This document shows positions 23,157 to 53,381 of a DNA stretch of 64,000 nucleotides, piece after piece. Location: assembly GCF_022394535.1 (NCBI RefSeq), contig NZ_CP089414.1:1178001-1242000 (forward strand), given 5' to 3'. The notes below the pieces were generated by a model. It ran no database searches, was not told where the DNA came from, and saw nothing but the letters and a program-made list of their open reading frames with translations. The number at the start of each line of letters is the position of its first letter. Within the stretch, counting starts at the first letter, position 1. The position numbers and the translations under genes are program-made. The DNA comes from Dyella terrae (GTDB lineage: Bacteria > Pseudomonadota > Gammaproteobacteria > Xanthomonadales > Rhodanobacteraceae).

Positions 23157-23232
<76 letters not shown>

Positions 23233-23259
23233 TGAAACTTTTGTACTTGCAACATCAAC

Positions 23260-23337
23260 TGGGGTGGAAGATGGGACTCGAACCCACGACCCTCGGAATC
23301 ACAATCCGATGCTCTAACCAGCTGAGCTACATCCACC
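23260..23337 (-). tRNA. tRNA-His (anticodon GTG)
   Basis: The cloverleaf includes the extra 5' G (position -1) opposite C73 that identifies tRNA-His, and the CCA is encoded. The anticodon loop is TTGTGAT (anticodon GTG) and the T-loop TTCGAGT. The acceptor stem has one U-U mismatch. It lies 27 bases upstream of tRNA-Lys. Confidence 0.95.
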
Positions 23338-23350
23338 GCAAACCTTGAAC

Positions 23351-23427
23351 TGGCGCGCCCGACAGGAATCGAACCTGCAACCGTCGGCTTAGAAGGCCGA
23401 TGCTCTATCCGGTTGAGCTACAGGCGC
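23351..23427 (-). tRNA. tRNA-Arg (anticodon TCT)
   Basis: The 77-base cloverleaf has acceptor GCGCCTG pairing CGGGCGC and an encoded CCA. The anticodon loop is CTTCTAA (anticodon TCT, decoding AGA and AGG), and the T-loop is TTCGATT. Thirteen bases separate it from tRNA-His. Confidence 0.95.
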
Positions 23428-23454
23428 TCGTGCACAGTGTGCATAGCATCTGCA

Positions 23455-23531
23455 TGGTCGGGGCAGAGGGATTCGAACCCCCGACATCCAGCTCCCAAAG
23501 CTGGCGCTCTACCAGGCTGAGCTATACCCCG
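23455..23531 (-). tRNA. tRNA-Pro (anticodon TGG)
   Basis: The 77-base cloverleaf has acceptor CGGGGTA, the 5' C1 typical of tRNA-Pro, and an encoded CCA. The anticodon loop is TTTGGGA (anticodon TGG), and the T-loop is TTCGAAT. It is the first gene behind the internal promoter at 23573-23601. Confidence 0.95.
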
Positions 23532-23572
23532 ATTTCGAACCCTCAACCACTTTCGCGGACTGAAGCCTTGAA

Positions 23573-23601
23573 ATGCTACGGGTGACGCCTAGTCTAGTCA
23601 A
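23573..23601 (-). promoter_or_regulatory. Sigma-70-type promoter upstream of the Pro-Arg-His-Lys tRNA genes
   Basis: On the minus strand TTGACT (23596-23601) is the -35 box and TAGCAT (23573-23578) the -10 box, separated by exactly 17 bases. It lies about 40 bases upstream of tRNA-Pro, in the 175-base gap after tRNA-Arg(ACG). It would allow the last four tRNAs to be transcribed apart from the first. Confidence 0.6.
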
Positions 23602-23706
23602 TCCGTATCAAAGCACACCGAACTTTATATCTTATGTCCGGCCCGTTTGGCGATTCACTGCCTTGCGGCGCAAGTGGTGATGCGAACATCACACCTTGCT
23701 ATTAAA

Positions 23707-23783
23707 TGGCGCGCCCGGAGAGATTCGAACTCCCGACCACCAAGTTCGTAGCCTGGTACTCTATCCAACTGAGCTACGGGCGC
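23707..23783 (-). tRNA. tRNA-Arg (anticodon ACG)
   Basis: The 77-base cloverleaf has acceptor GCGCCCG pairing CGGGCGC and an encoded CCA. The anticodon loop is CTACGAA (anticodon ACG, expected to be edited to ICG by TadA), and the T-loop is TTCGAAT. It is the promoter-proximal member of the cluster. Confidence 0.95.
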
Positions 23784-48360: not shown

Positions 48361-50859
48361 ATGCTACTCGCAGAGTATCCACAGGAAGTGGAAGGCCACC
48401 CGGATGTGGCAACAGTCACCACGCAGATCGTTCCATCCGTCCACACACGACTTTCCGGACTCGATGGCCTCCGGGCCATCGCGGTGTCGGCCGTCGTGCT
48501 TTTTCATGCCGATTTTTACTGGGCGCGAGGTGGCTACCTCGGCGTCGATCTGTTCTTTGTCATTTCCGGCTTCCTCATTACGGGGCTGATGGCCCGTGAA
48601 GTGGACCGCAGGGGTCGGCTGGATCTGCGCGACTTCTACTGGCGTCGCGCCAAACGCCTGCTGCCCGCATCGTGGCTGATGATGGCCGTGGTGGTGGCGA
48701 TCGCCACGTGGGTCGCGCGCGATGCACTGCCCCATCTGCGCAACGACGTCGTCGCTTCGCTCGCCTACGTCACCAACTGGGAATTGCTGCGCAGCCAGAC
48801 CTCCTACTTCGAGGCCACGGGCCGACCACCGCTTCTGCAGCACCTGTGGTCGCTCGCCATCGAAGAGCAGTTCTACATCCTGTGGGCGCCGCTGGCCTTC
48901 ATTCTTCTACCGCGCATGAAGCGTCGAGGCATGGCGGTTATCGCCATCGCGCTTGCCGCGGCTTCCGCCGCATGGATGGCGCTGTTGGCGCACAAGATCG
49001 GCTATCCCGGACAGGGTGATCCGTCGCGCCTGTATTTCGGCACCGATACCCACGGCTTTGCCCTGCTGCTCGGTTCGGCCCTGGGCCTGCTCTGGCAGCC
49101 GTCACCCGAACTGGATCGCCCAGGTGTGATGGCCCGCGCCACCGGCTGGCTGCTCGGTCTGATCGCACTGACATGCATGGTCGCGCTGTTCGCCATGATG
49201 GGCGAAGACACGCCCAGGCTTTATCCGTGGGGCTTCCTTGCCGCTGCGGCGACGTCGCTCGCACTGATCATGATCGCCACGCATCCGGGCATGGCGTTCG
49301 GCCGCTGCCTTGATAACCCCGTGATGCGCTGGATCGGCGAGCGCTCCTACGGGATCTACCTGTGGCACTGGCCGGTGTTCATGCTGACGCGCCCGGGTAT
49401 GGATCTGCGCGCGCTGGACAACCGCTCGGTGCTCGTCGTGCGCATCGTGCTGACGCTCGTCGTGGCAGCGCTCTCCTACCGCTATCTGGAAATGCCCATT
49501 CGTCGCGGTGCGCTCGGACGCATCTTCACCAGCACGCGCCGCCACGCATGGCCGGGACGCGTGGCGGTGATCGCTACGCTGGTGCTGGTATTCGCCTCCA
49601 TGGGCGTCTCGCTCTGGCACGCGCCCGCGCAAGCGAAGCCCGCGCAAGACGTGCGCGATGCGCTCGACCTCACTGCACCCGTAGCACCAATCCAACTACA
49701 GGACACGATTGCACCCATTGCAGCCGTGTCGGTGGAAGCGCCTGTCGAACCCGTGGTTGCACCGGTAGTCGACACGCAACCGGATCAACCCGCCGTGGAG
49801 GCGTTCACCGGTGACGAGCTGACGGCCGTGGGCGACTCCGTGTTGCTGGGCTCCAGCCGCCTGCTGAAGGCCACGCTGCCCGGCGCGGACGTGCACGCAA
49901 CGATGGGCTGGCAGGCCGCCGATGTCATCCGACAGATCAAGACGCTCAAGAGCGCAGGCGCCGTGCGCGAAGTGGCACTGGTACACCTGGGAACCAACGG
50001 CTACGTCACCGAGGATCAGCTGCGGCAGATTCTTTCCATGCTGTCCGACTGCAAGCGCGTGGTGCTGGTCAACACGCACGTGCCGCGTCGCTGGATGGAA
50101 GCCAACAACGCACTGATCGACCAAGTGGCGCCCGACTATCCGAACGTGGTTACTGTGCGCTGGAACGATGCGTCGGATAACCAGCCCGATTACTTCGTTT
50201 CCGATGGCGTTCACCTGACCACCATCGGCCAGCGCGCCTTCATCACGGAAATCATGCGCACAGGTCATCTGGCGCGTGACAAGGCGGAAACCGCAGCAGC
50301 AGACACGACCGAGACCGCGGCGACCCATGCCACGGGCGATCTTTCACCTACGCTCGAACTGGCCCCGCAACCGGCGGCCAGCGACGACTACTGGAACAAA
50401 ATGGCCCGTTGCGAGACGGATGCCAATTGGCAGAACGGCGGTCGTCATTCCGGCGGCCTTGGCATGTCGGTGGACGACTGGAAAACCTGGGGTGGTAATC
50501 AATTTGCCCCTACCCCGGCCGAAGCTACGCCCGCCCAGCAGATCGAAGTCGCCAATCGCATCTCGACGCAGGGCTGGACGAATGACACGGGCGATATCGT
50601 CAAACCCATCGGCTTCGTACGCTGGCGCTGCGTGGCAGCATTGGGTCGCCCGCACTCCGCCTCACCCAACACGTATACGCGAGATAGCGTGCTGGCGCAG
50701 ACGTTCCATCTGGGCGAGCGCGGCGACGTCGTGCGTGATCTGCAGCTGATCCTCACCGAAACACCCGATGGCATCTACACCATGAAGCTACGCAAGAAAC
50801 ACCTTGCGTATCTGAAGCAGAATGGCCTGCCCGAGAACCTCGCGGGCACGGATTCTTGA
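48361..50859 (+). CDS. Acyltransferase-3 / SGNH / Rpf-like transglycosylase / peptidoglycan-binding fusion
   Basis: 832 residues in four parts. (1) About 25-400: membrane acyltransferase 3 (GLDGLRAIAVSAVVLFHADF, YLGVDLFFVISGFLITG, WRRAKRLLPASW, HLWSLAIEEQFYILW), ending in a last helix near 395-410. (2) About 485-635: SGNH domain with GDS at 491-493, GTNG at 544-547 and DGVH at 615-618. (3) About 675-757: lysozyme-fold domain like actinobacterial Rpf, with MARCETDANW (Cys684, Glu685), GGLGMSVDDWKTWGG, APTPAEATPAQQIEVANRI and RWRC (Cys757). Glu685 aligns with the Rpf catalytic Glu, and Cys684/Cys757 with its disulfide. (4) 781-828: LGERGDVVRDLQ, DGIYTM and LKQNGLPEN, like a peptidoglycan-binding module. 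Parts 2-4 should be periplasmic. Parts 1-2 are the O-antigen/peptidoglycan O-acetyltransferase plan; parts 3-4 are unexpected. Identification of part 4 is weaker than of part 3. Confidence 0.85.
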   Translation: MLLAEYPQEVEGHPDVATVTTQIVPSVHTRLSGLDGLRAIAVSAVVLFHADFYWARGGYLGVDLFFVISGFLITGLMAREVDRRGRLDLRDFYWRRAKRLLPASWLMMAVVVAIATWVARDALPHLRNDVVASLAYVTNWELLRSQTSYFEATGRPPLLQHLWSLAIEEQFYILWAPLAFILLPRMKRRGMAVIAIALAAASAAWMALLAHKIGYPGQGDPSRLYFGTDTHGFALLLGSALGLLWQPSPELDRPGVMARATGWLLGLIALTCMVALFAMMGEDTPRLYPWGFLAAAATSLALIMIATHPGMAFGRCLDNPVMRWIGERSYGIYLWHWPVFMLTRPGMDLRALDNRSVLVVRIVLTLVVAALSYRYLEMPIRRGALGRIFTSTRRHAWPGRVAVIATLVLVFASMGVSLWHAPAQAKPAQDVRDALDLTAPVAPIQLQDTIAPIAAVSVEAPVEPVVAPVVDTQPDQPAVEAFTGDELTAVGDSVLLGSSRLLKATLPGADVHATMGWQAADVIRQIKTLKSAGAVREVALVHLGTNGYVTEDQLRQILSMLSDCKRVVLVNTHVPRRWMEANNALIDQVAPDYPNVVTVRWNDASDNQPDYFVSDGVHLTTIGQRAFITEIMRTGHLARDKAETAAADTTETAATHATGDLSPTLELAPQPAASDDYWNKMARCETDANWQNGGRHSGGLGMSVDDWKTWGGNQFAPTPAEATPAQQIEVANRISTQGWTNDTGDIVKPIGFVRWRCVAALGRPHSASPNTYTRDSVLAQTFHLGERGDVVRDLQLILTETPDGIYTMKLRKKHLAYLKQNGLPENLAGTDS

Positions 50860-50879: not shown

Positions 50880-52238
50880 ATGGCACCAGTAACACGTTTT
50901 TTGATGATCAGTGCCTGGTGCGCTGGCCTTTCCGCTCTTTCCTGCAGCCTTCCCGCTCAAGCACAGGATGCCCCTTCGTCGCTCGACGGCGTCAGCGACC
51001 TTGTCTGCCCCAACGCGCCGCCAGCGCCACCCAAGCCGATAGCGGGCCGCCCCGCCGCCCGCGTCAACATGAGCGGCACCCAGATGCCCAGCGACGCCGA
51101 ACTCGGCCCGCTGGCCAGGACGACCATCCGCCCGCAACCCCTGGTTGATACACAGACCCTTGCTGGATTCGCGCCGGGCAACAGCGAGCAACCGCGACGC
51201 ATCGCCATCTGGGGAGACAGCCATATCGCCGGTGGTCCGTTTGCATCGACGCTGATCCAGTCGCTGCGCGACAAGGGACTGAGCGTCGCCCCTCGCTTAC
51301 TGCCGCCAACGATGGGCCGCGCCAATGTGGTGCTACCGGGTTTGCGCGCGTACTGCATCGGCTCGAGCTGGACGACCGACATCGCCTACACCTCGCCATC
51401 GCCGCTCGACATCGGGCCAGGCTTGGCTAACCGTGTCGTCGACGCCGGGCCGGACAGCTACGTCTGGCTCGACGTGCGCAATCCCTCGCGGCAAGCCGAT
51501 GTGCGACAGCTCCAGGTGATCTATAGCGCACCCGCCGGCGCGACCATCGATTACGTGATCGACGATGGCGCACAGCGCACCGTGACATTGCCTGCATCGA
51601 ATACCAGCCAGGCGTTAGCGCTCGGCACCAACGGCGCCATGTCCACCATCAAGCTGCGCGTATCGCAGGGCAAGCTGGTGCTGCAGGGTTTCATCCTTGA
51701 CCGACCGCAGATGCCCGACGTCAGCTTCGACGTGTTCGGCCTGCCTTCCGCGACGGTAAAGGGCTGGGCCAACGTCAATCCGAGCACGTTCGCCCAATCA
51801 CTGCATGGCGTGAGTTACGACGGCGTGTTGTTGGAATTCGGTACCAACGAAGGCGCGGACCCTGACTTCGACACCGAGAAGTACGCCGCGATGCTGGAGC
51901 GCGCGCTCGGCAATATGCGACAAGTATTTCCCAAGGCATCGTGTGTGCTGGTGGGGCCACCCGATCGCGGCGTGTTGCGCCAAGGCAAGGGCGGCACGCT
52001 GCCGCTGCTCACCTACAGTCGCGTACACCAGCGCATCGAGCAGGTACAACGAGACGTAGGCAGCCGTTTCGGCTGTGCGGCCTGGAGCTGGCAAGACCTC
52101 ATGGGCGGACAAGGCGGCAGCTACGGTTGGGCGCATGCGCAACCCAGTCTGATGGGCCACGACCTGATCCACCTCAGCCCGGACGGCTATCGGCTCACCG
52201 GCCGCTCGCTGGCTCACAGCCTGGGCTGGTCGCCCTGA
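50880..52238 (+). CDS. Secreted SGNH/GDSL-family hydrolase or O-acetyl-transfer protein
   Basis: 452 residues from the ATG at 50880; a TTG at 50856 overlapping the upstream stop is an alternative. A signal peptide (LMISAWCAGLSALSCSLPAQAQ) is followed by a long domain with the SGNH blocks: IWGDSHIAGG (Ser114), FGTNEGAD (Asn323) and DLIHLSPDGY (Asp428, His431). An insertion rich in beta strands (residues ~190-310: WLDVRNPSRQADVRQLQVIY) could be a carbohydrate-binding module. Relatives act as acetyl esterases or transferases on peptidoglycan or polysaccharides. It starts about 20 bases after the acyltransferase fusion gene, so the two are co-transcribed and probably act on the same glycan. Confidence 0.82.
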   Translation: MAPVTRFLMISAWCAGLSALSCSLPAQAQDAPSSLDGVSDLVCPNAPPAPPKPIAGRPAARVNMSGTQMPSDAELGPLARTTIRPQPLVDTQTLAGFAPGNSEQPRRIAIWGDSHIAGGPFASTLIQSLRDKGLSVAPRLLPPTMGRANVVLPGLRAYCIGSSWTTDIAYTSPSPLDIGPGLANRVVDAGPDSYVWLDVRNPSRQADVRQLQVIYSAPAGATIDYVIDDGAQRTVTLPASNTSQALALGTNGAMSTIKLRVSQGKLVLQGFILDRPQMPDVSFDVFGLPSATVKGWANVNPSTFAQSLHGVSYDGVLLEFGTNEGADPDFDTEKYAAMLERALGNMRQVFPKASCVLVGPPDRGVLRQGKGGTLPLLTYSRVHQRIEQVQRDVGSRFGCAAWSWQDLMGGQGGSYGWAHAQPSLMGHDLIHLSPDGYRLTGRSLAHSLGWSP

Positions 52239-52310
52239 TCGCAAAGGCAACAACGCCTTGTCCATGATCGGGGACAAGGCGTTCACTCGACCGGGTGCTA
52301 ATCTCGCCGA

Positions 52311-53381
52311 ATGCACGCCCATTGGATCAGCCACGCCATCCAGACGCTGGACGCCGAGGCCCATCGCTCGGCGGACACGCACCTCATCCGATTGGATTTG
52401 CCTGCCTTTCCCGGCATTCCGCTTTACCTCAAGGATGAATCGGTCCACCCCACCGGCAGCCTGAAGCATCGACTGGCACGTTCGCTGTTCCTCTATGCCA
52501 TCTGCAACGGCTGGCTCGAGCAGGGACGCCCCGTGGTGGAAGCATCCAGCGGCAGCACCGCAATCTCCGAGGCTTATTTCGCGCGGCTGCTCGACCTGCC
52601 CTTCTTTGCGGTAATGCCGCGTAGTACCTCACGCGACAAGATCACGCAGATCGAATTCTTCGGCGGCCACTGTCATCTCATCGACGACACCGACGTCTAT
52701 GGCGCCGCGCAACGGCTGGCCGACGAGATCGGCGGCCACTACATGGACCAGTTCACCTATGCCGAGCGCGCCACCGACTGGCGCGGCAACAACAACATTG
52801 CCGAATCGATCTTCCGGCAGATGCAGCACGAGCCCGATCCCACGCCGCGCTGGATCGTCGTACCGGCCGGCACGGGCGGCACTTCCGCCACCATCGGCCG
52901 CTACATCCGTTATCGCGGCGGCCAGCTTGATCGCACGCAACTGGCCGTGGTCGATCCGGAACACTCAGTGTTCTACGACTACTACCATCATCGCGATCCG
53001 TGCCTGCAACTATCGCGCGGCTCGCGCATCGAAGGCATCGGTCGTCCGCGTGTGGAACCGTCGTTTATGCCCGGCGTCATCGACCGCATGCTGCGCGTGC
53101 CCGACGCCGCCAGCATTGCCGCCCTTGGCCTATTGGAAATGCTGCTCGGGCGGCGATGCGGTGGCTCTACCGGCACGAACTTGGTCGGTGCGCTACAACT
53201 GATGGCTGAAATGAAAGCACGAGGTGAACACGGCCCGATGGTCACCCTGATCTGCGACGGCGGCGATCGCTACAGCGGCAGCTATTACGACAGGAATTGG
53301 CTGGATCGCGAAGGCCTCCATCAGCCCGACGAACGCTCGCGTCTGGAAACGGTGCTCGGCGAAGGACGCTGGATCGACTGA
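52311..53381 (+). CDS. PLP-dependent cysteine synthase-family enzyme
   Basis: 356 residues of the fold-type II PLP family. Lys52 in [11 protein letters not shown] should bind [21 protein letters not shown] is the substrate loop, [16 protein letters not shown] binds the phosphate, and [16 protein letters not shown] and [12 protein letters not shown] close the site. The extra length and the GGSTGTN block place it with the CysK-like group that includes L-cysteine desulfhydrase-type proteins. Whether it makes or breaks down cysteine cannot be told. It is followed 53 bases later by the 3-hydroxyanthranilate dioxygenase gene. Confidence 0.85.

What the first reader, a model, noticed from the sequence alone, without database searches (positions are those of the whole stretch)
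48361..50859. Four-module fusion: O-acyltransferase + SGNH + Rpf-like muralytic domain + peptidoglycan-binding-like tail
Seen: after an ordinary acyltransferase-3/SGNH chain the protein continues for about 190 residues. This part matches the Rpf fold at its key points: CE then NW (Cys684, Glu685), GG-turn then W, AP...QQIEVANR helix and a closing WRC (Cys757). The tail then reads LGERGDVVRDLQ, DGIYT and NGLPE like a peptidoglycan-binding module. Known: Rpf domains (resuscitation-promoting factors, lysozyme/transglycosylase fold) are characteristic of Actinobacteria; acyltransferase-3/SGNH proteins O-acetylate peptidoglycan, O-antigen or other glycans. Inference: one polypeptide may both acetylate and cleave or bind peptidoglycan, coupling modification (which blocks lysozyme-like enzymes) to local cleavage, perhaps in growth resumption. 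I know of no described enzyme with this order in a gammaproteobacterium.
Basis: partly seen in the sequence, partly recalled or inferred. Interest (0 to 1): 0.82.

Follow-up and report, generated by a model that had tools for sequence, protein, structure and literature searches.

The report
Wall acetylase fused to wall cutter
A bacterium carries one protein that appears to join a cell-wall acetylating enzyme to a cell-wall-cutting domain, encoded next to a likely remover of the same acetyl groups, which offers a direct way to ask how wall protection and wall cutting are coordinated.

Summary

Best reading: a module that adds (OatA-like), removes (Ape1-like) and locally cuts or grips (Rpf plus tail) peptidoglycan. 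Lytic transglycosylases need the C-6 hydroxyl that OatA blocks, so writer and cutter on one chain would compete for one atom. Cleavage is not shown: Glu is lost in 8 of 99 Rpf-bearing relatives, three RpfB sugar-contact residues differ, and some relatives lack the domain. Growth resumption has no support here. My searches found no published description.

The parts
48361..50859 (+). Fusion gene, 832 aa: AT3 - OatA-like SGNH - Rpf domain - PGBD-like tail
48454..49479 (+). AT3 membrane acyltransferase domain, residues 32-373
   Evidence: PF01757 E 3.9e-39. A simple hydropathy scan gives 10 peaks in the whole protein, one at 401-419 where the 11th helix is expected and one in the linker at 452-470; this is no topology proof
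49816..50274 (+). OatA-like SGNH O-acetyltransferase domain, residues 486-638; Ser493, Asn546, Asp615, His618
   Evidence: PDB 6vjp E 5e-19; profile: the best four distinct sequences are OatA (identity of three of the four recalled); Ser, Asn, Asp, His in 121 of 121 relatives
50374..50631 (+). Rpf (PF06737) lysozyme-fold domain, residues 672-757; Cys684-Glu685 at 50410-50415, Cys757 at 50629-50631
   Evidence: Glu in 91 of 99, both Cys in 99 of 99 Rpf-bearing relatives
50677..50844 (+). PG_binding_1-like tail, residues 773-828 (no Pfam hit of its own)
50880..52238 (+). Partner gene, 452 aa from ATG 50880: signal-peptide-like start, Ape1-type peptidoglycan O-acetylesterase; 20 nt after the fusion's stop

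Best explanation
The two genes form a self-contained peptidoglycan O-acetylation module. The AT3 domain carries acetyl groups across the inner membrane to the OatA-like SGNH domain, which writes them on MurNAc C-6. The secreted Ape1-like partner takes them off. The Rpf domain and PGBD-like tail, on the writer's own chain, hold it on glycan strands, and in most members (those with Glu, this one included) can cut un-acetylated strands in the manner of a lytic transglycosylase. A transglycosylase needs the C-6 hydroxyl that the writer blocks and the partner frees, so acetylation state would decide where this protein may cut. Shown: anatomy, homology, predicted folds, gene linkage, conservation, selection. 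Inferred: all activities, the substrate, the coupling.
Against: No activity was tested. Glu685 is replaced in 8 of 99 Rpf-bearing relatives (Q 3, A 3, V 1, H 1); the tree needs five changes at this site, one of them the degenerate P0187 that is outside the 99. RpfB sugar contacts Q310, D312 and T315 are G701, S703 and D706 here; across the 99, position 701 is never Gln, 706 is Thr in 21; Q347 is kept in 84. Of the 121 relatives examined, 18 lack the Rpf domain and 3 more have an Ape1-like part instead. OatA's Val/Ile in Block II is Met515 here. The genome has eight AT3 matches over the cut-off, so other acylases could do the job. Of 13 named loci with the fusion, L010, L011 and L015 lack an intact partner beside it.
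Confidence: 0.6

Rival explanations
1. The Rpf domain no longer cuts: with the tail it is a glycan-binding and positioning module that presents MurNAc residues to the SGNH domain. The system writes and erases acetyl groups only.
For: Glu lost in 8 of 99 while both Cys stay in 99 of 99; the fewest changes at the Glu site on the tree are five, the degenerate P0187 counted; three RpfB sugar contacts changed; a PGBD-like tail next to it; the module is dispensable.
Against: Glu kept in 91 of 99, including P0001-P0052; Q347 equivalent kept in 84 of 99. The Gln310-to-Gly change is shared with free-standing actinobacterial Rpf proteins (GGxG in 15 of 25 fetched loci, read by eye, a sample drawn by similarity), so it need not mean inactivity.
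Confidence: 0.3
2. The acylase modifies another envelope glycan (O-antigen, capsule, exopolysaccharide), and the Rpf domain and tail merely tether it to the wall.
For: OafA and OafB, studied AT3-SGNH proteins of a Gram-negative bacterium, act on O-antigen (PMC7448272, PMC9558356, passages); OatA's Block II Val/Ile is Met here.
Against: SGNH is closest to OatA, and no row named OafB was listed; the partner is Ape1-type; the neighbouring genes read as pepP, parE, cysK and haao, not as a glycan cluster (names given by eye, no family search; only 44-55.5 kb of the window was looked at).
Confidence: 0.08
3. The Rpf part is a decaying passenger or a chimera of assembly without function.
For: Patchy distribution (8 of 233 family genomes over the cut-off); one degenerate relative, P0187.
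Against: Same architecture in 65 of 66 proteins from many contigs; purifying selection comparable to that on the AT3 and SGNH domains; confident fold.
Confidence: 0.02

Closest known systems
OatA (AT3-SGNH peptidoglycan O-acetyltransferase of Gram-positive bacteria)
   Same: AT3 plus SGNH order; SGNH closest to solved OatA domains; Ser-His-Asp and Asn in place
   Different: Gram-negative host; Rpf domain and tail added; Met instead of Val/Ile at Block II position 5; encoded next to an Ape1-type esterase, whereas OatA was said in 2018 not to be known coupled to one (PMC6174289)
Rpf proteins (RpfB, RpfC, RpfE; PF06737)
   Same: Fold, catalytic Glu, Cys pair, hydrophobic-pocket Trp
   Different: Here the C-terminal part of a membrane acylase; RpfB sugar contacts Q310, D312, T315 replaced
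Ape1 (peptidoglycan O-acetylesterase; C. jejuni 8gkd/8gld; 4k3u, recalled as the N. meningitidis enzyme)
   Different: Only 16-19% identical; coupled to an OatA-like writer instead of PatA/PatB
LtgA-Ape1 complex of Neisseria meningitidis
   Same: A lytic transglycosylase and Ape1 working together on O-acetylated wall (PMC7083599, passages)
   Different: Separate proteins there, and LtgA is not an Rpf-type enzyme (recalled); here an Rpf-type domain sits on the writer's own chain
PatA/PatB (OAP cluster) of Gram-negative bacteria
   Same: Same overall job, writer beside Ape1 (PMC6174289, passages)
   Different: No MBOAT match in this genome; the writer is AT3-SGNH

Membership tests
[quoted passage not shown]
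   the extracytoplasmic side is inferred
OatA | Ser-His-Asp triad and Block III Asn | tested here: met
   S493, N546, D615, H618 in 121 of 121
OatA | Val or Ile at Block II position 5, described as invariant in OatA (PMC5697884, passages) | tested here: not met
   Met515 in the window; in 121 relatives V 62, M 50, I 5, T 2, Q 2. So OatA-like, not filed as OatA
OatA | Acetyl transfer to MurNAc C-6 | not testable with these tools
   Needs muropeptide analysis
Rpf (PF06737) | Match above the curated Pfam cut-off | tested here: met
   46.7 bits against 27
Rpf (PF06737) | Rpf fold | tested here: met
Rpf (PF06737) | Catalytic Glu and Cys pair (Glu292, Cys291-Cys355 of RpfB, PMC11978375) | tested here: met
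   Glu685, Cys684, Cys757; 91, 99 and 99 of 99 relatives
Rpf (PF06737) | Muralytic and resuscitation activity | not testable with these tools
   Needs an assay; RpfB sugar contacts only partly kept
PG_binding_1 (PF01471) | Match above the curated cut-off | tested here: not met
   No hit for the window's tail; 12 of 25 tails hit weakly, best E 4.2e-4
PG_binding_1 (PF01471) | PGBD-like fold | tested here: inconclusive
Ape1 (partner gene) | Ape1 fold over the whole mature protein | tested here: met
Ape1 (partner gene) | Ser, Asp, His and Asn of SGNH enzymes | tested here: met
   S122, N331, D436, H439 invariant in the 51 aligned sequences
Ape1 (partner gene) | De-O-acetylation of peptidoglycan | not testable with these tools
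   Needs an assay
PatA/PatB system | MBOAT-family PatA | tested here: not met
   0 MBOAT matches in the genome

The most novel reading that the evidence does not exclude
A single-chain writer and cutter that compete for the same atom: the OatA-like domain acetylates MurNAc C-6, the Rpf domain needs that hydroxyl to cut, and the linked Ape1-type esterase resets it. The protein would cut only strands it has not yet capped and then cap the neighbourhood, a built-in brake that limits each wall opening in space. This would be an O-acetylation switch for lytic transglycosylation carried by one two-gene unit that is gained or lost as a block.
Probability: 0.3. Interest if true: 0.88.

Novelty: new variant of a known kind. 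Interest (0 to 1): 0.73.

Why it matters
O-acetylation blocks lytic transglycosylases, and how bacteria decide where these may still cut is hard to test when the parts are scattered. Here an OatA-like writer, an Ape1-type eraser and a transglycosylase-type domain come in two adjacent genes, with natural variants that lack the cutter, have lost its Glu, or fuse writer and eraser. These are ready-made controls. It also puts an OatA-like writer, known from Gram-positive bacteria, beside an Ape1-type esterase in Gram-negative bacteria, a coupling of OatA that a 2018 review said was not known (PMC6174289, passages).

Tried and rejected
Rejected: Rpf match by chance or assembly error. Weak PF06737 matches in G433 and G958, both below the cut-off: read by eye they look like SLT-type transglycosylases, one with a LysM-like end (my reading of the sequence, no family search run), so not counted as Rpf. 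Partner as PatB: I first recalled 8gkd/8gld as PatB; one search names them Ape1, and PatB of N. gonorrhoeae scores far lower. Tail as a sure PG_binding_1: left as PGBD-like; a profile of 25 tails found no PGBD among the four PDB rows at E up to 10. Papers: no hits for 4K40+Ape1 or 8GKD+PatB, nor for three of the four AT3/Rpf/O-acetyl/LT-domain terms; the three papers listed for Dyella looked unrelated (listing only). Contig-length matching of the two protein lists: 37 of 118 family proteins share a longest-contig length with one of the 120 listed partner hits. It rests on equal lengths alone; partner hits 121-160 were not listed and many contigs are short, so I did not build on it. Foldseek searches of 'pdb' and 'viral' never started.

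Limits: searches listed 120 of 160 and 120 of 201 hits, so the 121 relatives are the best-scoring part. The tree is a quick one of 111 of 121 rows after dropping near-copies, unrooted, with long branches meeting; Rpf presence or absence needs 8 changes on it, and gain cannot be told from loss. dN/dS values with dS above 1 are saturated. Gene names pepP, parE, cysK, haao and nudix are my reading of the sequence.

Full report
What is there. The gene at 48361-50859 encodes 832 residues. Pfam finds Acyl_transf_3 at 32-373 (E 3.9e-39) and PF06737 at 673-739 (46.7 bits, cut-off 27); PF13472 is below its cut-off. A simple hydropathy scan gives ten peaks over 1.3, one at 401-419, the place of the eleventh helix that AT3-SGNH proteins use to put the SGNH part outside, and one in the linker at 452-470, so it proves no topology (PMC7448272, passages). 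Residues 471-638 match 6vjp from solved structures (E 5e-19). A profile of eight relatives gives 6wn9, 6vjp, 5ug1 and 5ufy as the best four distinct sequences (E 1e-22 to 5e-6). 5UFY is S. pneumoniae OatA (PMC5697884, passages); that 6vjp and 6wn9 are S. aureus OatA and 5ug1 again S. pneumoniae OatA is recalled. Ser493, Asn546, Asp615 and His618 are kept in 121 of 121 relatives.

Selection. Against six relatives (L004-L009) the Rpf part has dN/dS 0.06-0.13, AT3 0.04-0.24, SGNH 0.02-0.20, the tail 0.08-0.21, and the linker before the Rpf part 0.10-0.91 with two values not computable. The domain is maintained, not a passenger.

Linkage. In 233 genomes of the family PF06737 is over its cut-off in 8; all eight are fusions followed by the partner. 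The partner is in 9, the same eight plus G465, an 80% complete genome whose AT3-SGNH protein lacks the Rpf part. Among 13 named loci with the fusion (L004-L016) the partner follows on the same strand in 9, is a shortened remnant in L015, is only a weak match on the other strand in L010, is not found in L011, and cannot be judged in L013, where the contig ends. Several named loci are the same genomes as unnamed ones (equal contig lengths). In three relatives (P0203, P0209, P0215; one branch, SH-aLRT 100) the OatA-like protein continues into an Ape1-like protein, 46-49% identical to the partner, without an Rpf domain. Such fusions are a usual sign that two proteins work together.

Distribution. 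PF06737 was found in 1 of 369 sampled genomes of the class (the window's own), in 2 of 398 of the phylum, the second a match below the cut-off to what looks like an SLT-type enzyme, and in 3 of 61 relatives, the window's genome included. Named hits include Dyella, Rhodanobacter, Thermomonas and Luteimonas, Paraburkholderia, and Rhizomicrobium MAGs; Dyella is Gammaproteobacteria and Rhizomicrobium Alphaproteobacteria. Many hits come from unnamed metagenome contigs. The window itself is Dyella by inference: its partner is 91% identical to one named D. jiangningensis. I picked 11 of the 225 family genomes without a fusion. In the nine of the same genus parE is followed within 254 bases by cysK (8) or haao (1); in the two of other genera neither was found in the stretch. 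Where the pair is present with this neighbourhood it sits between parE and cysK or haao; in L008 the neighbours differ. So it is present or absent as a unit at one site; which state is older is not settled.

How it probably works. OatA's AT3 domain passes acetyl from acetyl-CoA to the SGNH domain, which acetylates MurNAc (PMC9558356, PMC9487903, passages). The genome has no MBOAT match and nine AT3 matches, eight over the cut-off, so this protein is the best candidate for a wall O-acetyltransferase that I saw, though not the only AT3. O-acetylation at C-6 blocks lytic transglycosylases, which need that hydroxyl, and Ape removes it (PMC6174289, passages). In N. meningitidis Ape1 and the transglycosylase LtgA form a complex and act together (PMC7083599, passages). 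In mycobacteria RpfB works with RipA, and PBP1 inhibits the two (PMC2912383, abstract). Here writer, eraser and a transglycosylase-type domain come as one unit. Whether the Rpf domain cuts or only holds is open: Glu is kept in most members but not all, and the whole module is optional. I put about two to one on cutting in this member.

Novelty. Two AT3 papers describe AT3-only and AT3-SGNH forms, one also an AT3-racemase form; the word transglycosylase does not occur in either main text. The literature library holds only openly licensed PMC papers. It gave one paper with OatA, resuscitation-promoting factor and acyltransferase together, a Listeria review seen only in the listing; five for the Rpf/Proteobacteria/acyltransferase query, seen as listings except PMC1084345, of which I saw passages; none for the AT3/Rpf query; and none of the seven listed holds both PF06737 and PF01757. 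Rpf was described in 2005 as confined to actinobacteria (PMC1084345), but PF06737 is also reported in Lactobacillus plantarum (PMC3533731, passages) and in phage lytic proteins (PMC8310338, one passage). The parts are known; the combination, and an OatA-like writer coupled to Ape1, I found nowhere in these searches.

Noticed in passing
P0203, P0209, P0215: AT3-SGNH fused directly to an Ape1-like protein in one chain of 1116-1144 residues, without an Rpf domain.
   Followed up: partly
P0187: A relative whose Rpf and tail region is strongly degenerate although its SGNH part is intact: perhaps a decay intermediate.
   Followed up: no
L015, 1-1051: A contig labelled Acidimicrobiia MAG carries the end of the fusion and a partner with its middle missing; mis-binning or transfer.
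   Followed up: no
L014, L018, L036: MAG titles naming Klebsiella pneumoniae or Bifidobacterium breve look unlikely for these sequences; names of such records should not be trusted without a check.
   Followed up: no
window 52252-52283: A 12-pair inverted repeat between the partner's stop and the cysK-like gene, listed as terminator-like on the minus strand.
   Followed up: no
window 52311-53381: The cysK-like gene after the pair is also variable: present in L004 and L009 and in 8 of 9 same-genus genomes without the pair, not found in L005-L007 and L093.
   Followed up: partly
window 23157-23783: Cluster of five tRNA genes on the minus strand.
   Followed up: no
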